The notes under the pieces were generated by a model that did not search any database, was not told where the DNA came from, and saw only the letters and a program-made list of their open reading frames with translations. A DNA stretch of 64,000 bases, taken from Comamonas halotolerans (GTDB lineage: Bacteria > Pseudomonadota > Gammaproteobacteria > Burkholderiales > Burkholderiaceae_C). The DNA is taken from the NCBI RefSeq assembly GCF_030162935.1, contig NZ_JASAUZ010000003.1, positions 48,664 to 112,663 on the forward strand. Direction: 5' to 3'. A program made the position numbers and the translations under genes. This document shows positions 1,591 through 61,875 of the stretch, piece after piece (position 1 is the first letter of the stretch; the number at the start of each line of letters is the position of its first letter).

Positions 1591-1968
1591 GGGGCTGTCC
1601 TGGTTTCGACGTGGGTTCGGGATCAGCGTGGTGCATGTCGAGCTTGAGTGATGCTCGTAAATCTCCATTCAAAAAACTAACTGCAAACGACGAACGTTTC
1701 GCACTCGCCGCTTAAATCCGGTGAGCCTTGCAACAGCACGCTGATGGGCTGGGCAAAGGGGTAGTAATACCTCTCGGCTGCAAGGGAATTTTCATCAGCT
1801 GGCTTTGTACCGGGCACCTTGGTACCGAGCGAGATCCAAGGGGGCTGGCCTTGTTAGTAGCGTGTGTCTGCGCGGCTGACAGGGCGAGATTTAAATCAGA
1901 ACACTAAACATGTAGATCTGCCTGACGAAGGCTTGCGGACGCGGGTTCAATTCCCGCCAGCTCCACCA
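1591..1968 (+). ncRNA. ssrA: Transfer-messenger RNA (tmRNA)
   Basis: It starts with GGGGCTGTCCTGGTTTCGAC and ends with the T-arm GGTTCAATTCCCGCC and CCA. The reading frame encodes the tag peptide (A)NDERFALAA followed by TAA, the usual betaproteobacterial tag. With SmpB it rescues stalled ribosomes and tags the product for proteolysis. The last 29 bases form attL, and integration leaves the RNA intact. Confidence 0.97.
1940..1968 (+). other. attL: prophage attachment core in the ssrA 3' end
   Basis: These 29 bases (T-arm and acceptor end including CCA) recur exactly at 61847-61875; the flanking bases differ on both sides. The integrase gene starts reading 135 bases away, the usual layout for tRNA/tmRNA integrators. 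Confidence 0.93.
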
Positions 1969-2102: not shown

Positions 2103-3278
2103 TCACTTTGCGAGTTGGGCTGCTGGCTTGGGCTTTTGGAAGTCTTCACGAATGAACTTGCCATAGGTTCTGAAGACCATCTCCACATCCTCATGACCCA
2201 GCTGGCTAGCTATGTACCAAGGATTGGCACCAGCAGTCAGCATGGTTGAGGCGTAGGTGTGCCGGATTTGATAGGGATTCCGGTACTTGATCCCGGCACG
2301 CTCCATGATGGGCAGCCATGCGGTCTTACGGATTTGGGCATCTGTAGACCATGGCGCCAAGGTGCGTGGGTTGAGAAAAACACGCTGGCCACGTTTGATA
2401 CTGATGGGCTTTTGTGCGATCAGAGCCGCTACAGCATCTGCATTTAGATCCACAACTCGCAGCCCTGCAGCGGTTTTGGGGCTCTTGATCACGCCTGCGA
2501 CCTGGTTCAGTTCAATCTTGGCGGTGGCATTCTCAAGGTCTATGTGCTTCCACTCAAGAGCTTGAAGCTCTCCTGGACGAAGCCCTGTGTTGAACCAGAA
2601 CTGAAAAGTGGGGCGTTCATCATCCCGGCAGGCGGCCAAAATGGCCTCACGCTCTGACTGCGAGAATGGCTCAATAACGTAATCGCTCGACTTGCTGTTC
2701 TGTCGTATCAGCTTAGCTAAAGCGATTTGGTCGAATGGATTGCTTACGACAAGCCCATCATTGAGCGCATCCTCGAACATGGAGCGCAAAGGGGTGAGCA
2801 TGTTTCTTATAGCCTTAGCGGTGCAGTCCATGTTGCTGATCCAGTCTCGCAGCAGGGCGGGAGTGACCTCGTGCAATTCCATGCCGTGCCAGCGCTGCAT
2901 ACGCTCGCCTGTCAGGCTTTTTTTGTAGCCAGCAAAAGTAGCAGGTGACATCTTGCCGTTTTCAACCTGCTTTTGATAGAGCTGCAGTTGCTTATCAAGC
3001 AGCTCTTCCATAAGGCTAGAGTTGACGGTTTTCTTTTGGGCTTTGGTGCTTTCGGGGAAATACTCCTGGTAGACGAACTTCCCATCGGCAATTCGCCTCA
3101 GTATTTCGCCGCGAAGGTTGGCGGCGTACTGTATAGATGCCTTGTTGATCGGGCAGGGCGGCAGCAGCTCACGACATTGTTTACCTTCCCAGGTAAAGGC
3201 CACTTGGATACGTGGCCCTGATGCCATTTGCCGAATTAATACGCCTGTTGGCGTTGGGAAACTTGGTTTCTTATCCAT
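2103..3278 (-). CDS. int: Phage tyrosine integrase
   Basis: This 391-residue site-specific recombinase should integrate and excise the prophage at ssrA. The N-terminal arm-binding region is about residues 10-80, the SAM-like core about 90-180, and the catalytic domain follows. Visible catalytic residues: Arg234 in TGLRPGEL, Lys near 268, Arg339-His340 in YQIRHTYAS (box II has Tyr instead of the first His), His362 in LGHED and the nucleophile Tyr372 in RTYGKF. It is the phage gene closest to attL and points toward it. The xis stop overlaps its start by 43 bases. Confidence 0.95.
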   Translation of the reverse strand: MDKKPSFPTPTGVLIRQMASGPRIQVAFTWEGKQCRELLPPCPINKASIQYAANLRGEILRRIADGKFVYQEYFPESTKAQKKTVNSSLMEELLDKQLQLYQKQVENGKMSPATFAGYKKSLTGERMQRWHGMELHEVTPALLRDWISNMDCTAKAIRNMLTPLRSMFEDALNDGLVVSNPFDQIALAKLIRQNSKSSDYVIEPFSQSEREAILAACRDDERPTFQFWFNTGLRPGELQALEWKHIDLENATAKIELNQVAGVIKSPKTAAGLRVVDLNADAVAALIAQKPISIKRGQRVFLNPRTLAPWSTDAQIRKTAWLPIMERAGIKYRNPYQIRHTYASTMLTAGANPWYIASQLGHEDVEMVFRTYGKFIREDFQKPKPAAQLAK

Positions 3279-24661: not shown

Positions 24662-26839
24662 ATGCAAGCCATTGCACATAACGAAGCGCCTAAGCAATCT
24701 GAAGGCGAAGACCTGGACAAAAGCGCTTTTCTGCAGACGTTGCTGAGCAAGCGTTCAGAGGCTATTGCTGGGCGTGCTGGCTCTGGCATTGAAACAGAGT
24801 GGACAGAGGATGAAGAGCACTACCAGGGGATCGATGATGCCAACCGGGCTTTTCAGACTGCCAACCAGCTGTATCGCAGCAAGAACATTGGTGTGGATGC
24901 CAAACCTGATAGCCAGCAACTACGTTCGGTAATGTTCTTGAACATAACCCGCTCCTATGTGGATGCAGCCAGCGCACGCGTTGCTGATATGTTGCTGCCC
25001 ACAGACGACCGTAGTTGGCAGATCAAGGCCACGCCGATTCCCAAGCTCTCCGACGCAATGTTGAATCAATTGCGTGAGGTGATGGGGCCGCTATATGACC
25101 GCGCAACCATGGAGCAGTTCGTTGTGCAGCAGGTGGAGGCCGCCAAAGAAGCTGCACTGAAGATGCAATCAGCTATTGACGATCCTTTGGTTGAGAGCAA
25201 TTGGCACGGTGAAGTACGTCAGCTGATCGAGGACGCGGCGCGTATTGGGGCGGGTGTGCTCAAGGGGCCTTTCCCGGTGTTGCGTCAGGTGCGTATGCCG
25301 TACAAGCATCCCGTCACAGGGCATATCCATTATGTGAAGGCGCAAGAGGTCAAGCCTGCGAGCAAACGGATCGATTGCTGGAACTTCTTTCCAGATCCAG
25401 CATGCGGAGAAGACGTTCACAACGGAAGCTATACCTGGGAGCGGGACTATATTGGTCGGCGCAAGCTAAAAGAGTTGCTCAAAGACAGTAGCTACGATGC
25501 GGAAGCTATACGCAAAGCGCTCAAACAGGGACCAGGACGAACACGCCAGGGCACGGAGGCGGTGTATCGACCGAATGAAGACGAGTACGAAATGTGGATC
25601 TTCTACGGTCATTGCGCAAGAGACAGTCTGCGCGCAATGGGTGTTGAGCTTGACGAAGAAGAAGACGAGCGATTGCCGACGATGGCAGTGGTTATCAACG
25701 ACATGATCGTCAAGTTGGTGCTCAGCCCACAAGAAGATGGTGAGTTCCCGTATGACGTGCTGGCTTGGCAGCGTAGGCCAGGTATGCCCTGGGGTGTTGG
25801 CATCGGTCGGCAGATCCGGACCGTGCAGCGCATGCTCAATGGAGCGGTGCGCGCCATGATGGATAACGGTGGCTTGTCAGCTTCGCCTCAAATTGTGATC
25901 GGCAACGGCATTACCCCTGTTGATGGAAATTTCACGATTCGTCCGGGCAAGGTATGGCGTGCTGAGACCTCATCTGACGTTGCAGATGTACGGGGCGCCT
26001 TTGCCAGTTTTAGTGTGACCAGCGTGCAAAACGAGCTGATGAACATCATCAACTTCGCGCTCAAGATGGCTGAGGACACCACAGGCATGCCTGCGATGTT
26101 GCAGGGTATCCGTGGCGATGCTCCTAACACCCTGGGCGGCATGCAGATGCAAAACAACAATGCAACCAGTGTGCTGCGCAGACTGGCCAAGCGCTTTGAC
26201 GACTACATGACTCGCCCGCATATCCAGCGCTACTTTGACTGGATGATGACTTACAGCGAGGACGAAAGCATCAAGGGTGACTTCGAGATAGAAGTGCGGG
26301 CTTCTTCGGCACTGGTTGAGCGTGATGCCCAGCAGCAGTTCTTGACCACACTGTTGTCAGTGTCCGCGAACCCGGTCTATGGCCTGGATCCGGAGTTGCT
26401 GGCCGAGGAACTGGTCAAGGGTCAGCGCCTGGAAGTGAAGAACTTCAAGCTGTCGCCAGAAAAGCGGCAGCAGTCCGCGCAAGTTGATCCTACGGCGCAG
26501 GCCAAGGCCAAGCTGCTGGAGGCTCAGGCTACGGACAAGCTGGCTGATGCCGAAAAGAAACAGGCTCAAACAGTGGGCATTCGCGGAGAGACTGTCTATG
26601 GTGCTGTGCAGACGGCGCAGGTCATAGAGCAAGTACCTGGCACTGCTACCACTGCAGACGGTGTGCTGGGCACGATTGGCTTTGTAGACCAGAACGCAGC
26701 ACCCATGGTGCCGCAGGCCAGCGCTGCGGGGCAGGCTATCGATGTGCCACAGAACACCAATCCCACAACACCTGCCAGTCCATCAGTTGGATTGCACCAG
26801 GGTATAGAAACACCAGAGGCAGACGGCGTGAATTCTTGA
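24662..26839 (+). CDS. P22-type portal protein
   Basis: The 725-residue protein has portal features: DEEHYQGIDDANRAFQTANQLY, ARVADMLLPTDDRSW, CWNFFPDPACG and GMPWGVGIGRQIRTVQRMLNGAVR. The C-terminal tail is Gln/Ala rich and helical, possibly a barrel. It forms the dodecameric channel for DNA. The start is one base after the terL stop. A terminator follows at 26856. Confidence 0.9.
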   Translation: MQAIAHNEAPKQSEGEDLDKSAFLQTLLSKRSEAIAGRAGSGIETEWTEDEEHYQGIDDANRAFQTANQLYRSKNIGVDAKPDSQQLRSVMFLNITRSYVDAASARVADMLLPTDDRSWQIKATPIPKLSDAMLNQLREVMGPLYDRATMEQFVVQQVEAAKEAALKMQSAIDDPLVESNWHGEVRQLIEDAARIGAGVLKGPFPVLRQVRMPYKHPVTGHIHYVKAQEVKPASKRIDCWNFFPDPACGEDVHNGSYTWERDYIGRRKLKELLKDSSYDAEAIRKALKQGPGRTRQGTEAVYRPNEDEYEMWIFYGHCARDSLRAMGVELDEEEDERLPTMAVVINDMIVKLVLSPQEDGEFPYDVLAWQRRPGMPWGVGIGRQIRTVQRMLNGAVRAMMDNGGLSASPQIVIGNGITPVDGNFTIRPGKVWRAETSSDVADVRGAFASFSVTSVQNELMNIINFALKMAEDTTGMPAMLQGIRGDAPNTLGGMQMQNNNATSVLRRLAKRFDDYMTRPHIQRYFDWMMTYSEDESIKGDFEIEVRASSALVERDAQQQFLTTLLSVSANPVYGLDPELLAEELVKGQRLEVKNFKLSPEKRQQSAQVDPTAQAKAKLLEAQATDKLADAEKKQAQTVGIRGETVYGAVQTAQVIEQVPGTATTADGVLGTIGFVDQNAAPMVPQASAAGQAIDVPQNTNPTTPASPSVGLHQGIETPEADGVNS

Positions 26840-30995: not shown

Positions 30996-31504
30996 GTTCC
31001 ATGCCGTACAGGCAGCTCAGAAAGAACGGGGCCCGGAACCTTACTAAGTCCCAACGATCGCTGCCGTATAGGCAGCTCAGAAAATGCCGCGTATGCAGTA
31101 ACTCTGCCGCAGTTGGTTCGCTGCCGTATAGGCAGCTCAGAAAAGATCGTTACCCTGCAAGGTTTCGAGCCACGCGTTCACTGCCGTATAGGCAGCTCAG
31201 AAAACAAGGAGGGCTGCGTAAGCCCCGAGCGAAGTGTTCGCTGCCGTATAGGCAGCTCAGAAAGTTTTGGAGCGGTGATCCCCAGGAGCTGGTGAGTTCG
31301 CTGCCGTATAGGCAGCTAAGAAAATGGAGGATTAATACAGCAAGCAGCGCGCAATGTTCGCTGCCGTATAGGCAGCTCAGAAAATGACGGAGATAGCCCT
31401 GCGCATCTCGTTAGCTGTTCGCTGCTGTATAGGCAGCTCAGAAAATCTGGTTTACACAGCATGCACACCATGTCTCGTTCGCTGCTGCACAGGCAGCTTA
31501 GATA
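30996..31504 (+). CRISPR. Type I-F CRISPR array 1 (9 repeats, 8 spacers)
   Basis: Repeats start at 30996, 31056, 31116, 31176, 31236, 31296, 31356, 31417 and 31477. The 28-nt repeat begins GTTCGCTGCC and ends CTCAGAAA; its CTGCC/GGCAG stem with GTATA loop is the Cas6f hairpin of type I-F. Spacers are 32 nt, except the seventh (31384-31416, 33 nt). Repeats vary: the first (three changes), second (one), fourth and sixth (one each), and the last two. The last is degenerate as expected at the distal end. No cas genes are in the window. Spacers 4 and 5 (31204-31235, 31264-31295) recur in array 2. Confidence 0.95.
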
Positions 31505-31518
31505 GATTCGTTTAACTC

Positions 31519-31542
31519 AAACCCGCTTCGTCGGGTTTTTTT
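31519..31542 (+). terminator. Terminator after array 1
   Basis: AAACCCGCTTCGTCGGGTTT hairpin with T-run, 14 bases after the last repeat. Confidence 0.85.
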
Positions 31543-33387: not shown

Positions 33388-36300
33388 ATGAGCACTCCCA
33401 ATCCCTTTGCAGATCCTGCTTTTGGTCTAAGCAAGCAGCCTAAAAATGGCAAAACAGGTAATGGCAACCCGTTTGCAGATCCTGAATTTGGCAAGCAGCC
33501 ATTAGCTCCCAAGCGCTCCCTGAGAGCAGCCCTCAATGACACAGTGATCGAGGCTGCCAATTCGGCTGCCGGCACGGTATCAGCCACTTTTAACTTTGCC
33601 AGCCCTGGCAATGCTGCATCGCAGTGGATTGACAAGAACATCATTGAAGCGGGGGAAGCTGCACAGTCTGATGTAGTCAAGGCCGAGAAAGCACGCTATG
33701 CCCAGGAGATGCAGCAAGCCCAGGGAATGGGTGACGAAGTCTCTGCAACGCTGGGCTATGCAGCACGTAACCCATTGCTTGCGGCGGCACAGGCTGCAGG
33801 CTCTTTTGCTGTTCCAGGGCTGGGCGTGTCTAAAGCCAAAGCGCTGGCAGGTATTGCAGGTCTCGGTGCCAAAGGGGCCAGTCGTGCAGGCCTGGCTGCG
33901 GGTGCCGGTTTAGGCGCGGCTGCAGCTGGTGGTGATGCAGCAGGGACAGCCTATGAATTGTCGCGTGAAGGCGGAGCGACAGATGAGCAGGCGGTTGCTG
34001 CAGCCCGTGGTGCGAGTTTGATTCCAGCAGCTATTGGCGCTGCTGGCGGTCTTGTCGGGGCAGAGCGTTTGGTGGCAGGTGCCAAGGGCTTTGGTGGTGG
34101 CGTTGTCTCTCGTGCACTCAAAACTGGAGCAGTAGAAGGTGTTCAGGAGGCTATCGAAGAAGGTGTGACTCAGTACGAAGGCCAGCGTGCTGCTGTTCCA
34201 TTCAACCCAGACCTTGATCCAAGCAAGGGTGTTGCAGGAGCCGCCACTCTGGGTGGTGTTCTTGGTGGCACAACCGGTGCTGGGACTTCTTTGCTGACTC
34301 GTCAGAATCACAGCGCAGCTCGTAAACCCAGCGAGGATCTGGGGCTCGATCCTGAGAATGGCCCTCTCTCAAAAGTTGCTGCTGCTGCCGTGGATGAAGG
34401 GCGCGCAGCTGCATCTGTTCAAACAGCTCCGGACACGGTCAAAGATGAACTGTCTCTGGTGCCGCCGACGACCTCCGGACAAAGTTCTAACGCGCATCCG
34501 ACACCAGAGCAGCCTATCAATCCTCAAATGGAAGATGCCATTGGTCGTGACATGGAGCAACGCAATGCTCAGCTCTTGGAATCACCACTCCAAGATGCGC
34601 AGACCCCCGAGGTATCTGAGCCAACTGCCGATACATCCTATACCCAAGAACTCCCCTTCACGCCACTACCACTGCAAAACTATGGTGCCTCCACGCCTAT
34701 CGACGATAAACCGCAAACAGATTCGCCGTTGCAGGCGCAAGGCCAAGCGTCAACGCCTGTTACTTCGCAACAAGTAGAGGGAGCAGATGGCGCGCAAGTG
34801 CATCTTGACCAGTCGCAGACTGAAGAAGTACCTGTTACTCAACCCGCAGACAGCGCTGCACATTCGCTAGCGCAGAACGATCCAGAAGCCTCTGCTTTCG
34901 CAGCACAATCTCCCCAGCAAAGTGACGTGCCAGTACAGGCGATGTCCAGCCCACAAGCAAGTGCTGATCAAACGCAATCCAGAGCCTTCAAGGATTGGTA
35001 TGGAGACTGGCAGAATGCTGGGCATGAAGCCTCTCAAGCAGATTCCACTTCCAATGCCGCGCAGGACGCCGCAGCAGGAGCAGTTGACGTTCGACGACTA
35101 CAGGGATCGGGTGATGTGGGGGCGGCTGTTGATAGCCGATATGCAGAAGTTCCTATTGCTGGGGGAACCACGAACCCTGATGGGGCCCAAGGCATTGCGC
35201 CAGAGGATAGAGCGGCACTACGGGTGCACGACGCAGCCCCTGGGAGAGGCGCAGCCAGTGTGGGCAACACGGGAGGAGCGCTGGCACTGCCTGGCGTACA
35301 GCGAGAGGCGGGCTTGGATACGTCTACTGGTGTACGAGCTGCGCATGCAGGTAAGGTGGGGCAGGATGCGACGTTCACAGGGACCAGCGGGCCTACGGGA
35401 CCGGATGGATCGCCTTTACGCATATCTCAACTTACGTTTTCAGGGTCCTCCGGACCTACGGGGGTGGATGGAGCGCCACTTCCCCTCTATCACGGAACGC
35501 GAGAAGACATAACCGCCTTCGACCTGAACCACCCAACTCGCAAGGATCATGGGTGGCTGGGCCAAGGGGTGTACCTGGCGAGTGATCCCGTGACCGCGTC
35601 TGAATATGCCCAGCGCAAGATGGGCAAGCATGGATCCAGCGTCATGCCGGTGTATGCCAATGTGCGCAACCCGTATGTGGCGACGCAGGCGCAAAAGGAT
35701 CGTATCAAGGCTGGTGGTACGGCAGCCAGTCAGGCATTCACTGAGCGCTTGAAGGCCATGGGCCATGATGGCGTGGTGCTAGATTTGGGCGAGGCAGGCA
35801 TTGAGCTGGTGGCCTTTGAGCCGACCCAGATCAAGAGCACCACTGGCAATAACGGCGATTTTGATGGTTTCAATCCTGACATTCGCTACAGCCTAAGTGC
35901 CAAGGTTGTCACCAAGCCTACAGCCATTAATTTGCGTCGCGCCATGGTGCAACGCACAGTCAACAGCCTTAGCAAAGCCTGGGCTCAAGCACCTAGCATC
36001 ATCATCGTTGACAGCATGCAGGATGCTCAAGTTCCTGAGTCAGTGCGTGCAGCTGATGCGCTTCAGCGTTCACAAGGTGCCCAAGGAGAGCCAGAGGGTT
36101 TCTGGCATGAGGGCAAGGTGTACTTGGTTGCTAATGCTCTCTCAAGTTCTGCTGATGCTGCCCGCGTGCTGTATCACGAGGTGCTGGGCCATCATGGTCT
36201 AAAAGGTTCCTTCGGGCCTGATTTGGACAAGGTGCTGGTTCAAGTAGCCAAGATGCGTCCAAAAGACCTGGAGGCTAAGGCCCTGGGATATGGGCTTGAT

Positions 36301-39300
36301 CTGAACAATCCAGATCATGTTACCTACGCAGCAGAAGAGGTGCTTGCTGAAATGGCTCAGACACGCCCTGATATTGGGTTTGTACAGCGTGCCATCGCAG
36401 CGATAAGAAACTTTTTGCGCACTCATGTGCCAGGCTTTAGCACGCTGGAATTGACTGATGCTGACATCGTGCAAGGGTACTTGTTGCCTGCACGGAGGTG
36501 GGTGGAGAAGGGCGTTTTACAGGGTGGCAAGACAGTCCATAACCCGCCTGAGCATCCCAAGCCAGCGATGAGCCTGAGTCCAATGAAGTCAGTGGAGGCA
36601 AACATTGCTCGTGGTATGGAGTCGTTAGCCAAGGCGGTCACTGATAAAACTACAGTGCATAGAGCTATGCACCGCAACGGTCTGGGTTGGGTTGATTTTG
36701 TTTGGGGGAGTGAAGGGCAAATCAAACCCAGTGGCAGAACCAAAGGAGCGATGGGTATTGCGCACATCCTTGAGGCTCGACAGCGCAAGGACAGGCTTTC
36801 GGAGCAAGAGGCAATCCGATACCTGGGGGATGTCGTGAAGGCGGTGGCGCAAGGAGGTGAGTTCGACCGCAAGGAGGTGGCTCAGTCAACCCGTGTTGGT
36901 GTAGCGCACGAAAACACGATTGTTTGGCTCACCCAGAATAAAGGCTCCAACGCTTGGATAGTGACTGGATATGAAAAAACCCCCAGTGATGCAGTCGCGG
37001 GGAGAGCCACTACTACATCTACGCATGCTTCAGCTTCGCTTACCCGCAAAAGCATGGAGGGGGTCGAATCCATTGTGAGTGATGCTGATGTTTTAGGCAA
37101 CACCTTGTTCAGCCGTTCGCACACCGGTGGCGCTATCCGCTCCAGCATGGGCACGCTGACGCCCGCCCAAGAGGCGGCATGGAAGAATGTGGCCGGCCTG
37201 GAAAAGGTGCCAAGTCTGCGAGAGCGCTGGGATGCACTAAAGGCCAACTTGGGGCTGCGCATGAAGCAAGCCATGGTGGATCAGTTTGCACCCATTGCAG
37301 AGCTGGATCAGCATGCGTACATGATGGCACGCATGTCCAAGGGCAGTGACGGAACCTTGGAAGCTGCGTTGCTGTACGGCAAGCCTTTCCTGCGTGATGG
37401 TGTGCCGGATGTGGATATTAAGGATGGCGGCTTTGCCAATGTGCTGGCCAGCCTGAAGGGAGAGGATTACCGCTTCCTGACGTGGGTGGCTGCGCATCGT
37501 GCGGAGCTATTGAAGTCGCAAGACCGCGAGAATCTGTTCTCAGGCGGTGACATCAGCGACCTCAAGACTCTCAATGATGGCTTGATGGAAGATGGCAGCA
37601 GCCGCAAGGAGGCTTATGCCAAGGCGCTGATGCAGCTCAACAGCTTCAATGAGAGCGTGCTGCGCATGGCCAAGGAGTCGGGATTGATTGACCAGGACGC
37701 CTATGACTTGATGCGCGATCAGCCTTATGTGCCTTTTTATCGCTTGATGGAAGAGGAGGGCGGGCTGCAAGGGCCTAGCTTCTCCAAAGGGTTGACCAAC
37801 CAAGAGGCATGGAAAAGGCTCAGTGGTGGTACCGAACAGCTTAACGCTGACCTCCTGCAGAACTTGCTTTTGAACTGGGGCAATCTGTATGCGGCTTCAG
37901 CGCGCAACCGCGCAGCGCTGGCAACTATGGACGCAGCCGAGAAAATGGCCGTGGCCTATAAAGTGTCTAGCGATACCCAGGGTGCGGCCAAAGTGATGCG
38001 TGAGGGGGTAACAGAGTACTGGATGGTGGAGGATCCTTATCTTATGGAGGCCATCAGCGCATTGCACTATCAGGCAAGTCCCTTGATGAAACCTCTGGCC
38101 AAGGCCAAGCAGTTGCTCACACTGGGTGTGACGGTGAACCCAACATTCAAGATTCGCAATCTGATTCGAGATGTGGTGTCATCGATGGCCATTGCGGATC
38201 TAGGCTTCAATCCTGCAGCCAATGTTGCGAAGGGCTGGAAACTGACAGCCAGCGATAGTCAGATCTATGCTTCCATGCTTGCCTCGGGTGGAGTGATCAA
38301 GTTTGGCACGCAGGAGCAAACAGACCGTGCGCGCAAACAGGCAGCAAAACTCTCCGGAGTGATGCTGGACCAGAGTGGTGCCCAAAAGCTCTGGCGCCAA
38401 ATGCGCGAGCTCTACGATGTATACGCAGAGTTTGGTGACCGTGCCGAAAACGTCAACCGTGCAGCACTGTATGACCGTCTGATTGCCAAAGGACACAGCC
38501 ACGCAGAAGCTTCTTTCATGGCCCGCGATCTGATGGACTTCTCTATGGGAGGCAGCGCACCGGTGGTGCGCTTTCTGACGCAGTCAGTACCTTTTCTCAA
38601 CGCCCGCTTGCAAGGACTGTACAAACTTGGACGCGCTGCCAATGATGATCCCCGGCGATTTGCGACCGTGGCTCTGGCTGTGAGCATGGCATCGCTTGGT
38701 TTGCTGGCTGCCTATGCTGATGACGAGGATTGGAAGCGTCGCGAAGATTGGGACCGTGACAGCTATTGGTGGTTCAAGATTGGGGAGACGGCTTATCGCA
38801 TTCCCAAGCCGTTCGAGGTGGGCGCCATTGGTACGCTGGCTGAGCGTACGGCGGAAGCTATGTTCAGCGAGGAAATGGGTAGTCAGCGTTACATGGAGCG
38901 CATTGCGCATATGGTTAGCCAGACATTTGCTCTGGATCCCATTCCTCAGGCGGTCAAGCCCCTGCTCGATATCTATGCCAACAAGGATAGCTTCACTGGT
39001 CGTGCCATCGAGAGTCTGGCTGATCAGCGGCTGCGTCCAAAAGATCGCTTAAATGAACGAACTTCTGAAGTTGCCCGCCTGCTGGGGCAGCTGGGTCTGC
39101 CAGATCCAGCACAGCTGGTGAAGGGGGAGTACACGGAGCTAAGCCCCAAGCAGATAGATCATCTTCTGCGTGGGTACTTTTCCTGGATAGCAACTGCCGC
39201 AACGACAGTGTCGGATTACCCGTTGCGCATGGCTGCGGACCGGGGCGTACGGCCTGAGATGCGTCTGAAAGATATGTTCCTGGCAGGCAATTTTGTGGAG

Positions 39301-39636
39301 AGTTTGCCCACAGGAAGCAGTCGATATGTCAAAGCGTTGTATGAGCAGTCACGGCAGGTGGAGCAGGCGTATGCATCTTATAGAGATGCGCTGGCTTCAG
39401 GTAATTCTCGTAAGGCGACTGAGGTCATGGAGAGCGACGGAGACTGGATCAGACGCCGAGCCTCAGTTGTACAAGCTACCAAACAGCTGTCTCAATGGAA
39501 CGCCTTGGCCAAGCGTATCGAGGCTGACAACAATTTGGATGCAGTACAAAAACGCAAGCAATTGACCGCCATTGAACAGCGTAGGCATGAGATTGCTCAG
39601 CTTGCAGTGAGCAGGGTGGCAATTTCAGGTGGATGA
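33388..39636 (+). CDS. Giant polyvalent ejection/internal virion protein (2082 aa)
   Basis: Several domains are visible. Residues about 100-310 are Gly/Ala-rich hydrophobic segments. A linker rich in Gln/Thr/Pro follows to about 690, with two GPTG.DG repeats. An ADP-ribosyltransferase-like region starts near 697 (LYHGTRED...GQGVYLASD). A metallopeptidase-like motif YHEVLGHHG lies near 930. A PBECR-type nuclease-like region lies around 1085-1200 (WVDFVWGSEGQ...MGIAHILEAR). An LPD38-like region covers about 1290-1700 and a membrane-like segment lies near 1765. Such proteins enter the cell with the DNA. The enzyme activities are inferred from motifs only. Confidence 0.85.
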   Translation: MSTPNPFADPAFGLSKQPKNGKTGNGNPFADPEFGKQPLAPKRSLRAALNDTVIEAANSAAGTVSATFNFASPGNAASQWIDKNIIEAGEAAQSDVVKAEKARYAQEMQQAQGMGDEVSATLGYAARNPLLAAAQAAGSFAVPGLGVSKAKALAGIAGLGAKGASRAGLAAGAGLGAAAAGGDAAGTAYELSREGGATDEQAVAAARGASLIPAAIGAAGGLVGAERLVAGAKGFGGGVVSRALKTGAVEGVQEAIEEGVTQYEGQRAAVPFNPDLDPSKGVAGAATLGGVLGGTTGAGTSLLTRQNHSAARKPSEDLGLDPENGPLSKVAAAAVDEGRAAASVQTAPDTVKDELSLVPPTTSGQSSNAHPTPEQPINPQMEDAIGRDMEQRNAQLLESPLQDAQTPEVSEPTADTSYTQELPFTPLPLQNYGASTPIDDKPQTDSPLQAQGQASTPVTSQQVEGADGAQVHLDQSQTEEVPVTQPADSAAHSLAQNDPEASAFAAQSPQQSDVPVQAMSSPQASADQTQSRAFKDWYGDWQNAGHEASQADSTSNAAQDAAAGAVDVRRLQGSGDVGAAVDSRYAEVPIAGGTTNPDGAQGIAPEDRAALRVHDAAPGRGAASVGNTGGALALPGVQREAGLDTSTGVRAAHAGKVGQDATFTGTSGPTGPDGSPLRISQLTFSGSSGPTGVDGAPLPLYHGTREDITAFDLNHPTRKDHGWLGQGVYLASDPVTASEYAQRKMGKHGSSVMPVYANVRNPYVATQAQKDRIKAGGTAASQAFTERLKAMGHDGVVLDLGEAGIELVAFEPTQIKSTTGNNGDFDGFNPDIRYSLSAKVVTKPTAINLRRAMVQRTVNSLSKAWAQAPSIIIVDSMQDAQVPESVRAADALQRSQGAQGEPEGFWHEGKVYLVANALSSSADAARVLYHEVLGHHGLKGSFGPDLDKVLVQVAKMRPKDLEAKALGYGLDLNNPDHVTYAAEEVLAEMAQTRPDIGFVQRAIAAIRNFLRTHVPGFSTLELTDADIVQGYLLPARRWVEKGVLQGGKTVHNPPEHPKPAMSLSPMKSVEANIARGMESLAKAVTDKTTVHRAMHRNGLGWVDFVWGSEGQIKPSGRTKGAMGIAHILEARQRKDRLSEQEAIRYLGDVVKAVAQGGEFDRKEVAQSTRVGVAHENTIVWLTQNKGSNAWIVTGYEKTPSDAVAGRATTTSTHASASLTRKSMEGVESIVSDADVLGNTLFSRSHTGGAIRSSMGTLTPAQEAAWKNVAGLEKVPSLRERWDALKANLGLRMKQAMVDQFAPIAELDQHAYMMARMSKGSDGTLEAALLYGKPFLRDGVPDVDIKDGGFANVLASLKGEDYRFLTWVAAHRAELLKSQDRENLFSGGDISDLKTLNDGLMEDGSSRKEAYAKALMQLNSFNESVLRMAKESGLIDQDAYDLMRDQPYVPFYRLMEEEGGLQGPSFSKGLTNQEAWKRLSGGTEQLNADLLQNLLLNWGNLYAASARNRAALATMDAAEKMAVAYKVSSDTQGAAKVMREGVTEYWMVEDPYLMEAISALHYQASPLMKPLAKAKQLLTLGVTVNPTFKIRNLIRDVVSSMAIADLGFNPAANVAKGWKLTASDSQIYASMLASGGVIKFGTQEQTDRARKQAAKLSGVMLDQSGAQKLWRQMRELYDVYAEFGDRAENVNRAALYDRLIAKGHSHAEASFMARDLMDFSMGGSAPVVRFLTQSVPFLNARLQGLYKLGRAANDDPRRFATVALAVSMASLGLLAAYADDEDWKRREDWDRDSYWWFKIGETAYRIPKPFEVGAIGTLAERTAEAMFSEEMGSQRYMERIAHMVSQTFALDPIPQAVKPLLDIYANKDSFTGRAIESLADQRLRPKDRLNERTSEVARLLGQLGLPDPAQLVKGEYTELSPKQIDHLLRGYFSWIATAATTVSDYPLRMAADRGVRPEMRLKDMFLAGNFVESLPTGSSRYVKALYEQSRQVEQAYASYRDALASGNSRKATEVMESDGDWIRRRASVVQATKQLSQWNALAKRIEADNNLDAVQKRKQLTAIEQRRHEIAQLAVSRVAISGG

Positions 39637-40299: not shown

Positions 40300-40867
40300 G
40301 TTCGCTGCCGTATAGGCAGCTCAGAAAACAAGGAGGGCTGCGTAAGCCTCGAGCGAAGTGTTCGCTGCCGTATAGGCAGCTCAGAAAGTTTTGGAGCGGT
40401 TATCCCCAGGAGCTGGTGAGTTCGCTGCCGTATAGGCAGCTCAGAAAACTTGAAGAAGGTTGCAGGCTGGGAAAGCGGGGTTCGCTGCCGTATAGGCAGC
40501 TCAGAAAGGGTAACGTAGCAGAGCCGGTCGCAGCTGACGGTTCACTGCCGTATAGGCAGCTCAGAAAATCTGCGCTTCAACCGTGTCAACGTCCGAGACG
40601 TTCGCTGCCGTATAGGCAGCTCAGAAAAATCGGCTCATACATGCAGTCGCTAGCCCCATGTTCGCTGCCGTATAGGCAGCTCAGAAAACATCGCTGATAG
40701 AGCTGCGCCGAATACAGGGGTTCGCTGCCGTATAGGCAGCACAGAAAATATCGGACTGGTAGTGCAAGGTGAAGGCGGAGTTTGCTGCCGTATAGGCAGC
40801 TCAGAAAAAAGACCAGCAAGCGATGCATCAAGGCGTCACGTTCACTGCCGTATAGGCAGCTCAGAAA
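40300..40867 (+). CRISPR. Type I-F CRISPR array 2 (10 repeats, 9 spacers)
   Basis: Repeats start every 60 bases from 40300 to 40840; all nine spacers are exactly 32 nt. The repeat is the same 28-mer as in array 1, with single changes at 40540, 40720, 40780 and 40840. The distal end is not degenerate. Spacers 1 and 2 (40328-40359, 40388-40419) match spacers 4 and 5 of array 1 in the same order, each with one base changed. The array is co-directional with the late genes and ends at a terminator (40891). No cas genes are seen. Confidence 0.95.
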
Positions 40868-40890: not shown

Positions 40891-40914
40891 CAAAGCCCTC
40901 TGGCGAGGGCTTTG
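40891..40914. terminator. Bidirectional terminator between array 2 and the XRE gene
   Basis: CAAAGCCCTC/GAGGGCTTTG perfect arms; a shared end for the array transcript and for the convergent regulator gene. Confidence 0.8.
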
Positions 40915-40926
40915 TAAGTAAGTCAG

Positions 40927-41430
40927 TTATGACTTAGGTGATGGGCTTTTTTTTTGAGAGCTGGATGTATCTGTGTCAACTGGGCGAAGCAACGAATCCA
41001 ATTTGCGACCACTGACCGCAATGACTTGCTGCAGATATTGTTCCGCATCAGCCGAGAATTGTTGCCGAAACTTCTCGTCAGCTTGAGCGAGCCTACTTGC
41101 ACCAAGAAGCATCAAGTACTTGAGGATCATGTGCACAGGGACGTTTATCTCTGTTGAGATTTTAAGAGCCTCTTTGTATTTATCGTCAGGAATTTCAAGC
41201 TCGATGGCATGCACTGCGTCTCGCTCGTAAGTGTCGTCACCTTTGAGCCATTCGTGATTGACAGCCAGAGCCTTAGCCAACTTCATGAGAACCGGAGGCC
41301 GAGGAGTGCTTTTGCCACTTTCGTAGCGCGAAAGCTGAACTGTGGAAATTCCAGTTATTTCAGATAGCTCTCGCTGGGTTATGCCTGCGTCAGAGCGTGC
41401 GTGAAGAAGTCGGGAGGCGAACTCAATCAT
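40927..41430 (-). CDS. XRE-family regulator of the immI-like island (167 aa)
   Basis: An N-terminal helix-turn-helix is clear (RSDAGITQRELSEITGISTVQLSRYESGKSTP). The middle part IELEIPDDKYKEALKISTEINVPVHMILKYLML may oligomerise. It diverges from the Arc-like gene, in the place of Mnt in P22 immI. It probably represses the BRO/Ant antirepressors in the lysogen (inference). Confidence 0.8.
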   Translation of the reverse strand: MIEFASRLLHARSDAGITQRELSEITGISTVQLSRYESGKSTPRPPVLMKLAKALAVNHEWLKGDDTYERDAVHAIELEIPDDKYKEALKISTEINVPVHMILKYLMLLGASRLAQADEKFRQQFSADAEQYLQQVIAVSGRKLDSLLRPVDTDTSSSQKKSPSPKS

Positions 41431-41519: not shown

Positions 41520-41711
41520 ATGATTAAATATCCCCATTCTACAGTTCTAGGATCGAAGCGGCGCACACAGGTTGGCTTGGAGCTGCCGGTGGAAATTGAG
41601 GAGTTTTTGCGACAACGAGCACAGAGTGAGTTCAGGTCGTTTTCGAAAGAGATTGCAATGCGCCTTATACGCAGCGTGGAGCAGGAGGCACAGCATGGAA
41701 AGCTGGCCTAA
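41520..41711 (+). CDS. arc: Arc-family ribbon-helix-helix repressor (63 aa)
   Basis: TQVGLELPVEIEEFLRQRAQSEFRSFSKEIAMRLIRSVEQE is the Arc/Mnt fold. Start at MIKYPHST fits the AAAGG spacing better than an ATG six bases upstream. It overlaps the antirepressor gene by 17 bases, as arc-ant in P22 are adjacent. Confidence 0.8.
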   Translation: MIKYPHSTVLGSKRRTQVGLELPVEIEEFLRQRAQSEFRSFSKEIAMRLIRSVEQEAQHGKLA

Positions 41712-42504
41712 AAAAGGAAACGCCCCTGGAGGTAGGAGTCCAGAGGCGTTGAGTGAAGTGTCCCAATACGCAAAGAAAGGAACAATCGTGAGTAATTCTA
41801 TCGCGAAAGTACAGAAAAGTACCACCATTTCTCCTGATCCAAACAAGCTGGCTTTCAACAGCGTCTCGTTCGACGTTGTGATGCGAGATGGTAGGCAGTG
41901 CTTGAAGGCAGTAGAGATTGGACGGGCCCTTGGGTATTCCGACGAAAAGGCAATTCAGCGCATCTATGCTCGCCATGCAGATGAGTTCACTCAGGAACTG
42001 ACAGGGGTGGTCAAGTTGACCACCCCTTCCGGAAAGCAGGAATCACGTGTTTTCTCCCTGCGTGGTGCCCACCTGCTTGCAATGTTTGCCCGCACCAAGA
42101 TTGCCAAGGACTTCCGCAAGTGGGTGCTTGATGTGCTTGACCGAGAGGTTGAGCGACAAGCGCAGAAGCAGACTCCGGTCATGAGCCTGACGGATTGTGG
42201 CGACAAAGCACAGGTTGGCAAATTCCTGATTGCTATGCGCAAAGGAGCAGTTCAGCACCTTGCCCAGATCGAAAAGCAAATGGTGGCCTGGGAGATCGTG
42301 GACGAACGGATGGAGAAGGGCATGCCAGCAGAGCAAGCGGCGGAGATAGGTGCTCGAATTGAGAGGCTGGGAAAGTTGTTCCATCCGTTCAGCGAACAGT
42401 TTACGGATGTGCTGGGTATTAGCCGAGCATTGCGTGGCTTAGACCCACGGATGGGGGCGAGCAGGGCTGGCTGGGTTGAAGTGCTGCCAAAGATCACTGC
42501 ATAA
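41695..42504 (+). CDS. BRO-N/Ant-type antirepressor 1 (269 aa)
   Basis: Strong GCAGGAGG ribosome site before MESWPKKGNAPGG. The BRO-N domain runs about 50-155 (FNSVSFDVVMRDGRQCLKAVEIGRALGY, SLRGAHLLAMFARTKIAKDFRKWVLDVL). An inner GTG start at SNSIAKVQ is possible. Phage antirepressors of this type bind repressors and allow lytic growth. Confidence 0.8.
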   Translation: MESWPKKGNAPGGRSPEALSEVSQYAKKGTIVSNSIAKVQKSTTISPDPNKLAFNSVSFDVVMRDGRQCLKAVEIGRALGYSDEKAIQRIYARHADEFTQELTGVVKLTTPSGKQESRVFSLRGAHLLAMFARTKIAKDFRKWVLDVLDREVERQAQKQTPVMSLTDCGDKAQVGKFLIAMRKGAVQHLAQIEKQMVAWEIVDERMEKGMPAEQAAEIGARIERLGKLFHPFSEQFTDVLGISRALRGLDPRMGASRAGWVEVLPKITA

Positions 42505-42516
42505 CAAGGGTCATTC

Positions 42517-43287
42517 ATGAGCAATATCACACCTTATAATTTTGAAGGCGCAAGCATTAGGGCTCTGGAAATCAATGGTGAGCCTTGGTTTGTTGGAAAG
42601 GACATTGCAGATGCCCTTGGATACGCTGACCCAACTACTGCCATGCGCTCGCATTGCCGTGGGGTGCAAAAGCTGCACCCCATCCCTGACACGCGAGGCC
42701 GCATGCAGGAAACGCGCCTGATCTGCGAGCCTGACATGCTGCGGCTGATCGTGAACAGCACTCTTCCAGCAGCAGAGCGTTTTGAGCGCTGGGTCTTTGA
42801 AGAGGTGCTGCCCTCCATCCGCAAGACTGGAAGCTATACAGCCAAGGCTGCGGCAACACCACTCAAGGCGACTGCTGAGGCAGCCAGGGCATTTGCTCCA
42901 CTTGTCCGCGTTGCCCGCCTGCTGGGCTGCGATAAGAACGCAGCAGCTATCAGTGCAAATCAGGCCATCTACCAGATGACCAATATCAACCTGATGCAGC
43001 AACTCGGGCACACACACTTGGAGGCTGACAGCCAGGATGGTCACTGGTACACGCCCACGGAGCTAGGCAAGGCTATCGGAGTCGGCGCACGCGGGACTAA
43101 CCTGCTGCTGGCTGAGGCCGGACTACAGATGAAGCTCAACGAAAAGTGGGAGGCGACGGATGCCGGTAAGGATTTCTGCCGCCTGTTCGACACTGGCAAG
43201 AAGCATGGCAGCGGTGTTCCGGTGACCCAGATGAAATGGTCGCGAACTGTGATTCCTCTTCTGGGTGAGCGCAAGGAAGTCGCCTGA
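42517..43287 (+). CDS. ant: BRO-N/KilAC antirepressor 2 (256 aa)
   Basis: BRO-N is at about 5-110 (IRALEINGEPWFVGKDIADALGYADP, ERFERWVFEEVLPSIRKTGSY) and a KilAC-type C-terminus from 170 on (YTPTELGKAIGVGARGTNLLLAEAGLQ). It follows antirepressor 1 by 12 bases. Two BRO genes in tandem suggest redundancy or split targets. Confidence 0.85.
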   Translation: MSNITPYNFEGASIRALEINGEPWFVGKDIADALGYADPTTAMRSHCRGVQKLHPIPDTRGRMQETRLICEPDMLRLIVNSTLPAAERFERWVFEEVLPSIRKTGSYTAKAAATPLKATAEAARAFAPLVRVARLLGCDKNAAAISANQAIYQMTNINLMQQLGHTHLEADSQDGHWYTPTELGKAIGVGARGTNLLLAEAGLQMKLNEKWEATDAGKDFCRLFDTGKKHGSGVPVTQMKWSRTVIPLLGERKEVA

Positions 43288-56037: not shown

Positions 56038-56739
56038 CTAGCGAAGCTGCAAGCTACCTTGCTGCGGGGCAGCCACCGCATTGCGAGCAGCCATGCGGCC
56101 CAGGCGGGCGGTGCAGGTGGATGCAAGCTGGGTGAGGGTCTGTGCGTCAATGCAGATGCTGTCCTCGATGGCGCTGTGAAAGCGCTCCATGGGCAGCACA
56201 TAGGCGTTGCTTTCGATGGGTTTTACACAGGCTACAGCCGTAGTTTCAGGATTGGCATCAAAGCCAAGCATGTAGCGGTTGTGCCGCCAGTCGTTGCCTT
56301 GGAGCACAGCATCAAACACGGACTGGTAGACCTCTGCGGTGGCCGCAACTGCAGTGCGGTGGGCGAGGGCGATCTGGTCGGGGTCGTAGGCGAGCTTTTG
56401 CAACTCGGCCTCCATGCGGTTGAAGGCGTCGATGTAGGCCAGCTTGAACGCCAGCGCCTTCTTGCCGGTGAAGCCCATTGCCAGCAGCGTGAAGCCGTCG
56501 CGGGTGAGGCGGTAGGCGGGGTAACTAGCCTTGGCCCCATTCCCACTTTCCACTTCGACAGACGCCTCCGCAAAATTGCGGAGGTGTTCCTCGCTTAGTT
56601 GGGGCAGCAGATTACGGATGGTTCGGAGCACATCGTCATGGCGCTTGCTAAAGTGGCGTGCCAGATCTGTGCTGAGGGTGGTGGGTTTGCCGTCAACAAT
56701 GGTGATGGCGGGAGTGATAACCGATGCGGTTTTAGACAT
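56038..56739 (-). CDS. Rha-family phage regulatory protein (233 aa)
   Basis: The N-terminal Rha domain is clear: TTLSTDLARHFSKRHDDVLRTIRNLL, NFAEASVEVESGNGAKASYPAYRLTRDGFTLLAMGFTGKKALAFKLAYIDAFNRMEAEL. The C-terminus is unrelated. Rha (P22 orf201-like) interferes with phage growth in some IHF-deficient hosts and is used as an antirepressor-like module (family knowledge). Confidence 0.88.
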   Translation of the reverse strand: MSKTASVITPAITIVDGKPTTLSTDLARHFSKRHDDVLRTIRNLLPQLSEEHLRNFAEASVEVESGNGAKASYPAYRLTRDGFTLLAMGFTGKKALAFKLAYIDAFNRMEAELQKLAYDPDQIALAHRTAVAATAEVYQSVFDAVLQGNDWRHNRYMLGFDANPETTAVACVKPIESNAYVLPMERFHSAIEDSICIDAQTLTQLASTCTARLGRMAARNAVAAPQQGSLQLR

Positions 56740-56769: not shown

Positions 56770-56988
56770 TCATGACCCGTTCTTACGCGAGGCATGAGGC
56801 GGCCGGGAGGTTAAGAACCTAGGACAAGCTAGGCGGACTTCTTTCCCTTGCGGGTGTTGTATCCGTCGCCCTCCCGGCCAAAAATCAGCACCTGCAAAGG
56901 TGCAGGCGTGCAAAGTCCGGGCGCAAAAAAACCGCCAAGCTATCGGGTGCGGTTCTTCCGCTTGTCCTAAGGAGTTCTTACGCTCCAT
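56770..56988 (-). CDS. Small protein upstream of Rha (72 aa)
   Basis: Begins MERKNSLGQAEEPHPIAW. Basic, Cys- and Pro-containing, of a type often placed next to Rha genes and sometimes named as division inhibitors or Ash proteins. Sequence evidence is weak. Confidence 0.35.
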   Translation of the reverse strand: MERKNSLGQAEEPHPIAWRFFCARTLHACTFAGADFWPGGRRIQHPQGKEVRLACPRFLTSRPPHASRKNGS

Positions 56989-58024: not shown

Positions 58025-59035
58025 ATGGAATTATTCAACCCCATTGTTCCGCGAGAGCGCTGGCATCCCATATTCAAGATGCTGGTGGAAGGAGACTATG
58101 CTCCGGAACGCGCTGTACTTACGCGTTGGGCGGAGGGGTTCTCCGACCGTGACGGGAAGTTTGTCCAAGAATTTCAGTTGTCGTTCGAGCCCTGCCTGTG
58201 GGAACTCTATTTGAATGCCTGCTTAGTCGAGCTGGGCCATCAACTTGATTTCTCTCATCACGCGCCTGACTTCGTCGTCCAAGGTAATGTCTCGTTTAGT
58301 CTCGAGGCAACGATCGCAGCTCCAGCCGCAGGCGGGAGGCCGGCCTATGGCTGGTCAATTCATGACTTACCAGAAGACCTAAACCAGTTCAATCTGGAAT
58401 CGACCCTACGCATTTGCAACAGCTTCTCTTCGAAGGTGAAACGGTACAGAGAACACTACAAAACTCTCGGCCATGTGGTCGGCAAGCCGTTCGTGATAGG
58501 CATTGCGTCATTCGATCGCCCGCTTGCTCACTTTGCTGCACTGCGACCCGTGATTGCCGCGCTATATGGTCTTTACCATGACGAAGAAGCGACGCCACGC
58601 GATGCGACGAGCGTGGTCAGCTACAACGTCGCGCAGGCACCCAAGAACGCCGACGTAAATATTGACCTTGGGCTGTTCTGTGATGATAGTTTTGCTGACG
58701 TATCGGCAATCATCTATAGCTCCGTGGCCACGTGGGGGAAAGTTCGTGGCGTAGCCGACAACTCCGATGCCAAGATCGTCTTCACGACCTTACATCCACA
58801 GGAGGGAAGCCTGATGCCGCGAGTCTTGACGAGACTGAAGCGAGACTATTCGGAGCACCTTCTGGACGGATTGGTGGTTCTGCACAATCCGTTCGCTACC
58901 CATCCGTTACCAAGTGATGTGTTTCAGCATCCTCGGGTCGCTCAGATCCGTCCAGCTCCATCAGGTGAGCTGGTAACGAACGCGCCCGACGATTTCCTGC
59001 TGTTGCGAATGCTCCAGTCGTTTGTCGATCAGTGA
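58025..59035 (+). CDS. Putative PD-(D/E)xK-like accessory protein (336 aa)
   Basis: FEPCLWELYLNACLVELGHQLDFSHHAPDFVV followed by SFSLEATIAAP gives a W/FELYL helix, PDF and an E.T strand, as in restriction-endonuclease-like folds. The late part contains DGLVVLHNPFATHPL. Proteins of this type are scattered on islands and prophages. A defence role is inferred from this pattern and from the cargo location; catalytic Lys is not identified. Confidence 0.5.
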   Translation: MELFNPIVPRERWHPIFKMLVEGDYAPERAVLTRWAEGFSDRDGKFVQEFQLSFEPCLWELYLNACLVELGHQLDFSHHAPDFVVQGNVSFSLEATIAAPAAGGRPAYGWSIHDLPEDLNQFNLESTLRICNSFSSKVKRYREHYKTLGHVVGKPFVIGIASFDRPLAHFAALRPVIAALYGLYHDEEATPRDATSVVSYNVAQAPKNADVNIDLGLFCDDSFADVSAIIYSSVATWGKVRGVADNSDAKIVFTTLHPQEGSLMPRVLTRLKRDYSEHLLDGLVVLHNPFATHPLPSDVFQHPRVAQIRPAPSGELVTNAPDDFLLLRMLQSFVDQ

Positions 59036-61846: not shown

Positions 61847-61875
61847 CGCGGGTTCAATTCCCGCCAGCTCCACCA
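61847..61875 (+). other. attR: second copy of the 29-bp ssrA core
   Basis: Identical to 1940-1968. It is followed by a hairpin that fits the original ssrA terminator. Confidence 0.92.

What the first reader, a model, noticed from the sequence alone, without database searches (positions are those of the whole stretch)
30996..31504. Cas-less type I-F CRISPR array inside the late region of a podoviral prophage (array 1)
Nine 28-nt repeats with the Cas6f hairpin and eight 32-33 nt spacers lie between the head-tail adaptor gene and the next late unit. No cas gene is in the window. If the host or a co-resident supplies I-F Cas proteins, the prophage could arm the lysogen against rival phages. Alternatives are decoy repeats that occupy Cas6f/Csy proteins (as with RNA anti-CRISPRs), or a relic. 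The leader-side repeats are degenerate, which argues against recent spacer uptake.
Basis: partly seen in the sequence, partly recalled or inferred. Interest (0 to 1): 0.93.

Follow-up and report, generated by a model that had tools for sequence, protein, structure and literature searches.

The report
Prophage CRISPR arrays borrowing host Cas
A prophage in a Comamonas-group bacterium carries two CRISPR arrays but no cas genes of its own, in a cell whose genome holds a complete type I-F CRISPR system with nearly the same repeat, so it likely lends the cell guide RNAs against rival phages; related prophages, one of them in Delftia acidovorans, carry smaller arrays with spacers that match another prophage of the same family.

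Summary
Confirmed and extended. Array 1 (30996-31504: 9 type I-F repeats, 8 spacers) is real; a second lies at 40300-40867 (10 repeats, 9 spacers). Two adjacent spacers are shared with one change each, leaving 15 distinct. The prophage sits in ssrA. The same genome has a complete I-F locus (cas1, cas2/3, csy1-4, 28 repeats) on another contig. Host and prophage repeats differ at two loop bases; 18 of 19 prophage repeats keep the stem, 16 of 19 the host handle. Neither array has the host leader. Four related prophage lineages carry shorter arrays at one site as a conserved cassette (TGGTACGCT box, repeats, terminator) with mostly different spacers; one relative has the empty site. Four of their 13 distinct spacers match one other prophage of the family, each beside CC. 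Best reading: guide arrays that use host Csy proteins to exclude rival phages. Against: none of the window's 15 spacers has a protospacer in anything searched (only partly searched), no promoter was found, and one carrier genome (D. acidovorans NBRC 14950) has no csy4. The kind is known (C. difficile prophages, archaeal viruses); this is a new I-F variant.

The parts
30996..31504 (+). Array 1: nine 28-nt type I-F repeats, eight spacers
40300..40867 (+). Array 2: ten 28-nt type I-F repeats, nine spacers
31176..31323 (+). Block of array 1 (repeats 4-6, spacers 4-5) shared with array 2; 4 differences in 148 bases
40300..40447 (+). Block of array 2 (repeats 1-3, spacers 1-2) shared with array 1
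31519..31538 (+). Terminator-like hairpin with T run directly behind array 1; a similar hairpin without an array is in relatives
40891..40914 (+). Hairpin behind array 2 with a poor T run; not called by the terminator scan
   Evidence: seen in the sequence; one search did not call it
1940..1968 (+). Left att repeat, 3' end of the tmRNA gene ssrA (1591-1968)
61847..61875 (+). Right att repeat, 29 identical bases
2103..3278 (-). Integrase of the prophage
   Evidence: phrog_1, E 1.4e-50
24662..26839 (+). Portal protein, used to find related prophages
58025..59035 (+). Homologue of the anti-phage protein PD-T7-5 inside the prophage, a second candidate defence gene
   Evidence: E 2.2e-104

Best explanation
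The two arrays are cas-less type I-F guide arrays carried by a prophage, and they likely feed crRNAs into the host cell's own Csy complex so that the lysogen would destroy the DNA of competing phages. Predicted steps: each array is transcribed, from the late operon or from an unrecognised promoter, as far as the hairpin behind it; host Csy4 (Cas6f) would cut at the conserved stem; crRNAs with the host-type CUCAGAAA handle would load into Csy1-3; Cas2/3 would degrade matching DNA next to CC. Spacers are probably renewed by recombination at repeats with other arrays, since the host leader is missing. Shown here: both arrays, the host cas locus, repeat compatibility, spacer sharing with drift, absence of the host leader, and relatives' spacers that match another prophage of the family beside CC. 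Not shown: transcription, processing, interference, or any target of the window's own spacers.
For: Complete I-F cas locus (Cas1, Cas2/3, Csy1-4, each over its Pfam cut-off) in the same genome. Host repeat and prophage consensus differ only at loop positions 12 and 14 and fold alike; 18 of 19 prophage repeats keep five stem pairs (G-T allowed), 16 of 19 the host handle. Relatives: 4 of 13 distinct spacers in four lineages match prophage G031 (exact; one indel plus a first-base change; 3 and 2 mismatches), CC at 4 of 4 sites; reversed spacers gave none up to 7 mismatches ungapped and one 16-nt hit in the gapped search. The two genes hit by G036's spacers were not found in the five array-bearing records nor in the window. 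Conserved cassette with changing spacers and an empty site. A second candidate defence gene in the prophage.
Against: None of the window's 15 spacers has a convincing match in the named phages, in the listed plasmid rows, in 4.68 Mb of partly overlapping fetched loci, or in the partial pattern searches. No promoter-like site near either array. No host leader. The carrier genome G045 (D. acidovorans NBRC 14950) has no Csy4, and Csy4 is in only 15 of 53 genus genomes, so the array can sit where it cannot work. One further match of G036 spacer 2, in G021, has CA, not CC. Array 1 repeat 1 loses a stem pair.
Confidence: 0.6

Rival explanations
1. Relic: the arrays were captured by recombination and are now untranscribed or unused, drifting with the prophage.
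For: No leader, no promoter-like site, no protospacers, one change in each shared spacer, degenerate outer repeats of array 1, and a carrier genome without csy4.
Against: 18 of 19 stems and 16 of 19 host-type handles are kept; array 2 has at most one change per repeat. Relatives swap spacers within conserved ends and match a rival beside CC. But changes per base in the stem (3 of 190) and elsewhere (13 of 342) are too few to show selection.
Confidence: 0.22
2. RNA anti-CRISPR: the repeats are transcribed as decoys that occupy host Cas6f and Cas7f and protect the prophage from the host's own CRISPR.
For: RacrIF1 is a prophage-encoded I-F repeat with this action (PMC10651486, passages); the prophage lives in a cell with a matching I-F locus.
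Against: Racrs are solitary repeats that lack a 5' handle from an upstream repeat (PMC10651486, passages); here 19 repeats frame 17 spacers of 32-33 nt. Relatives' spacers match a rival prophage beside CC, which a decoy does not need. Host spacers do not match the window within 6 mismatches, so no immediate threat is visible.
Confidence: 0.12
3. The guides act on the host chromosome or on the prophage's own genes, as regulators.
For: The late position on the sense strand would fit a lytic-stage role; nothing else.
Against: No window spacer matches the window outside the arrays within 8 mismatches (best 9). Four spacers have no match within 3 mismatches in the own genome outside the arrays; the other 11 were not searched through the whole genome.
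Confidence: 0.05

Closest known systems
CRISPR arrays in Clostridioides difficile prophages (type I-B)
   Same: Arrays in prophages, generally in the structure/morphogenesis module, similar to host arrays, with spacers that match other phages of the species (PMC4916379, passage); their crRNAs are the most expressed in two strains (PMC6079278, passages).
   Different: Here subtype I-F in a Comamonas-group host; relatives show a conserved cassette with an empty site; no targets and no RNA data for the window's own arrays.
Virus-borne mini-CRISPR arrays of archaeal portogloboviruses SPV1/SPV2
   Same: No cas genes, host-type repeats, same site but different spacers, spacers against related viruses (PMC6858448, passages).
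   Different: Those have 1-2 spacers and a host-like leader; here 8 and 9 spacers and no host leader.
Leaderless phage and prophage mini-arrays (Faure et al. 2019, seen only as cited in PMC6858448 and PMC7099407)
   Same: No leader, spacers against related phages, acquisition suggested by recombination (passages).
   Different: Described there as 1-2 spacers with repeats identical to the host's; here longer, two per prophage, with two loop differences from the host repeat.
Cyanophage N-1 CRISPR array
   Same: Phage array without cas genes, four spacers without matches, host-like repeats (PMC4916379, passages).
   Different: Transcribed during infection and with an AT-rich leader; type and host differ.
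RacrIF1 solitary repeat (RNA anti-CRISPR)
   Same: Prophage-borne I-F repeat hairpin (PMC10651486, passages).
   Different: Solitary repeat without spacers, acts as decoy.
Vibrio phage ICP1 type I-F system
   Same: Phage-borne type I-F array (PMC11656645, passages).
   Different: ICP1 carries its own cas genes and targets PLE.

Membership tests
Type I-F CRISPR array | 28-nt repeat with the Cas6f stem-loop and 8-nt handle | tested here: met
   Rfam CRISPR-DR4 on 17 of 19 repeats; 18 of 19 full stems; folds
Type I-F CRISPR array | regular unique spacers of about 32 nt | tested here: met
   16 of 17 spacers are 32 nt, one is 33 nt; 15 distinct apart from two near-identical pairs
Type I-F CRISPR array | adjacent host-type leader | tested here: not met
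   Upstream 200 nt score 18 and 16 against the host leader, within shuffles, while 10 of 11 chromosomal arrays of the genus that I could compare score 39-64
Type I-F CRISPR array | cognate cas genes in the same cell | tested here: met
   Cas1, Cas2/3, Csy1-4 on contig C2
Virus-borne mini-array (1-2 spacers, repeats identical to the host's) | one or two spacers | tested here: not met
   8 and 9 spacers; definition from PMC11656645 and PMC7099407
Virus-borne mini-array (1-2 spacers, repeats identical to the host's) | repeats identical to the host's | tested here: not met
   two loop differences from the host repeat
Virus-borne array used in phage-phage conflict | no cas genes in the virus | tested here: inconclusive
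   whole-genome searches for Csy4 found only contig C2; not all window ORFs were scanned for other cas families
Virus-borne array used in phage-phage conflict | spacers match related viruses next to a PAM | tested here: inconclusive
   met in relatives (4 of 13 distinct spacers); 0 of 15 for the window in the searches made
Virus-borne array used in phage-phage conflict | transcribed, processed and interfering | not testable with these tools
   needs RNA and interference assays
RNA anti-CRISPR (Racr) | solitary repeat not associated with other repeats | tested here: not met
   19 repeats in two arrays, none solitary within 7 mismatches

The most novel reading that the evidence does not exclude
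Comamonas- and Delftia-group prophages keep a dedicated, exchangeable guide cartridge: a compact array with its own start box and terminator at a fixed site, whose spacers are swapped by repeat-mediated recombination so that each lineage aims the host's I-F machinery at its current rivals, and which is gained or lost as one block; the window's two longer arrays are the same weapon in a sister lineage.
Probability: 0.35. Interest if true: 0.75.

Novelty: new variant of a known kind. Interest (0 to 1): 0.6.

Why it matters
It puts guides and machinery in one cell: a prophage with 15 distinct guides and an intact I-F locus with a near-identical repeat. Whether bacterial prophages use host Cas proteins against rivals becomes directly testable in one lysogen. 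The cassette in the relatives, with an empty-site allele and changing spacers but no host leader, also makes it testable how phage arrays gain spacers. In IMG/VR the pattern is not rare: 36 of 37 array-bearing records that I selected had no Csy3 (some may be ends of host arrays).

Tried and rejected
Led nowhere: protospacer searches for the window's spacers. Plasmid searches listed 30 of 38 and 30 of 35 records; the short hits listed fall on repeats and the long ones look like arrays at 65-70% identity; the unlisted rows were not seen. The single hits in named phages (Zymomonas record, Xanthomonas phage SB4; 27 nt, E 0.04 and 0.6) span repeat sequence and were taken as chance. Weak 8-9 mismatch matches (8, against 3 in the reversed control) were taken as chance. 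One search (array 1 against 53 genomes) returned repeats of host arrays in a capped list, so it says little on protospacers. Among 812 spacers parsed from those loci, matches to my spacer list came only from L104 and L105, which are the NBRC 14950 prophage array and the window's own array 2. Not counted as targets: gapped hits of A2_7 (16 nt), G036_3, G044_3 (20-22 nt, E 0.001-0.017) and G013_4 (6 mismatches, CC, in related record G040, E 7e-5); the last could be a fifth. Self-like matches of other viral arrays were not followed. A terminator count behind viral arrays (8 of 26 downstream, 3 of 26 upstream, 12 of 260 shuffles; 7 of 33 arrays left out for short flanks) is only suggestive and misses cassettes whose last repeat overlaps the stem. 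Chance or artefact rejected: 19 regularly spaced repeats, none on the other strand.

Full report
What is there. The window holds a prophage in the tmRNA gene: ssrA at 1591-1968, an integrase at 2103-3278 (minus strand) and a 29-bp copy of the gene's 3' end at 61847. Terminase, portal and major head genes lie at 22.5-29.2 kb on the plus strand. The portal's listed relatives in named phages are 23-44% identical (20 of 37 records listed). I did not test the label 'podoviral' further.

Array 1 is at 30996-31504 (nine repeats, eight spacers), array 2 at 40300-40867 (ten repeats, nine spacers). Both are on the plus strand, that of the late genes. Spacers 4-5 of array 1 equal spacers 1-2 of array 2 with one change each; the shared block of 148 bases has 4 differences, which points to common descent or exchange followed by drift. 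No further repeat lies elsewhere in the window up to 7 mismatches.

Machinery. Contig C2 of the same genome carries Cas1, Cas2/3, Csy1, Csy2, Csy3 and Csy4, each above its Pfam cut-off, and an array of 28 repeats. Host repeat and prophage consensus differ only at positions 12 and 14, in the loop, and fold to the same hairpin. Eighteen of 19 prophage repeats keep five stem pairs and 16 of 19 have the host's CTCAGAAA handle. None of 27 host spacers matches the window within 6 mismatches.

Leader. The 200 nt before arrays 1 and 2 do not resemble the host leader: scores 18 and 16, reached by 49 and 129 of 200 shuffles. The same holds for the relatives G011 and G013 (17 and 17). Of 11 chromosomal arrays of the genus compared in the same way, 10 score 39-64 and one scores 18.

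Who the host is. The tools give it no name. Contigs of genus members equal in length named contigs of three Comamonas genomes, of two Delftia acidovorans genomes (one is NBRC 14950) and of one Burkholderiaceae bacterium. I therefore say Comamonas group, as an inference. Csy4 is in 15 of 53 genus genomes, this one included; G045 (NBRC 14950) has none.

Relatives. A portal search of IMG/VR gave 46 loci. I gave 43 of the 46, plus one locus found by its repeat (L060), to a whole-record repeat search: 6 of 44 records matched, 5 of the 43 portal relatives among them. G010 and G011 hold the same array, so I count four lineages: G010/G011, G012, G013, G036. In all four the array is on the strand opposite to the late genes, between the head genes' end and the conserved part of the homologue of the 2082-aa gene. 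Its ends are conserved: a TGGTACGCT box (TGGTACTCT in G012) two bases before a degenerate first repeat, and a degenerate last repeat that runs into a GC-rich hairpin with TTTTT. I read the box as an extended -10 element, from general knowledge and untested; arrays 1 and 2 lack it. The spacers between these ends differ, apart from two shared by G010/G011 and G013 with one change each. In G024 the left gene end and the right flank adjoin without the cassette: an empty site. The other relatives fetched in whole or part showed no match to the left flank.

Targets. Four of the 13 distinct spacers of these lineages match one related prophage, G031: G013 spacer 3 exactly (its G010/G011 form with one mismatch), G010/G011 spacer 1 with one indel and a changed first base, G036 spacer 1 with three mismatches at the far end, G036 spacer 2 with two. 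All four sites have CC directly upstream. G036 spacer 2 also matches G021 with two mismatches and CA. The four spacers of L060's record have no counted match. G013 spacer 4 has a 6-mismatch, CC-flanked match in G040 that I left out. Reversed spacers gave no match up to 7 mismatches and one 16-nt match in the gapped search, against 10 for the real ones. The two genes hit by G036's spacers were not found in G010-G013, G036 or the window. Carriers and G031 share 27-34% of the carrier's length at 83-92% identity: rivals of one family, not the same phage. That CC is the I-F PAM is general knowledge.

The window's own 15 spacers have no convincing protospacer in named phages, in the listed plasmid rows, or in 4.68 Mb of fetched, partly overlapping loci up to 7 mismatches. 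Five of 15 were searched in IMG/VR, by an exact seed with three free positions; two in 399 genomes and two in 53, up to 3 mismatches. This is the main gap.

Mechanism. I infer that the arrays supply crRNAs to the host's Csy complex and so exclude competing phages. Each array ends before a hairpin; that of array 1 is terminator-like and has counterparts without an array in relatives, while that of array 2 was not called. No promoter-like site was found near either (the scan expects about 2 by chance and covers sigma-70 types only). They might be read through from the late genes. The missing leader argues for spacer gain by recombination, as others suggested for phage mini-arrays (PMC6858448, passages). 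A PD-T7-5 homologue at 58025-59035 is a second candidate defence gene in the prophage.

Known or new. The kind is known: C. difficile prophage arrays (passages in PMC4916379, and PMC6079278), archaeal virus mini-arrays (PMC6858448, passages), and a review that says viral mini-arrays target related viruses (PMC11656645, passages). RacrIF1 is the decoy alternative (PMC10651486, passages); a model of such conflicts exists (PMC7099407, passages). A search with Delftia, Comamonas, prophage, CRISPR array and type I-F (at least 4 of 5 terms) gave 3 papers, none on this by the listing; the library is open-access only. Other literature searches. Not met in these: the I-F subtype in this host group, arrays of 8 and 9 spacers without the host leader beside an intact cognate locus, and the cassette with an empty site.

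How common. Of 54 loci with two or more loose repeats I chose 31 by eye, plus the six records above; 36 of 37 had no Csy3. Some are probably ends of host arrays at prophage borders, which I did not sort out.

Verdict.

Noticed in passing
window 58025-59035 +: Homologue of the phage-defence protein PD-T7-5 (PADLOC E 2.2e-104) near the right end of the prophage.
   Followed up: partly
window 33388-39636 +: A 2082-aa polyvalent protein with ADP-ribosyltransferase (ART-PolyVal), PBECR1 nuclease and LPD38 domains, probably injected with the phage DNA (inference).
   Followed up: no
window 62160-63404 +: An ORF of 414 aa just outside the right att site that reads like a second integrase (my reading of its sequence, no family search that would show it), so a second element may sit in tandem at ssrA.
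   Followed up: no
window 41572-43287 + and 56038-56739 -: Two anti-repressor genes beside array 2 and a Rha-type regulator further right; a repressor-like HTH gene lies just behind array 2 at 40927-41430 on the minus strand.
   Followed up: no
L010 (host array spacer 3); L371, L372: A host chromosomal spacer matches two prophage regions of the genus with one mismatch each, without CC.
   Followed up: no
L235, L253, L278, L236: In other viral contigs with I-F arrays, a spacer resembles the carrier's own sequence with 1-6 mismatches and no CC, as if it were aimed at a relative's version of the gene; L236's record carries Csy3.
   Followed up: no
L292 position 159: A 4.2-kb viral contig has a two-repeat unit whose spacer matches the same contig exactly next to CC; assembly effect or self-targeting.
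   Followed up: no
window 56793-56879 -: A match to the small RNA family sRNA-Xcc1 (67 bits) inside the prophage.
   Followed up: no
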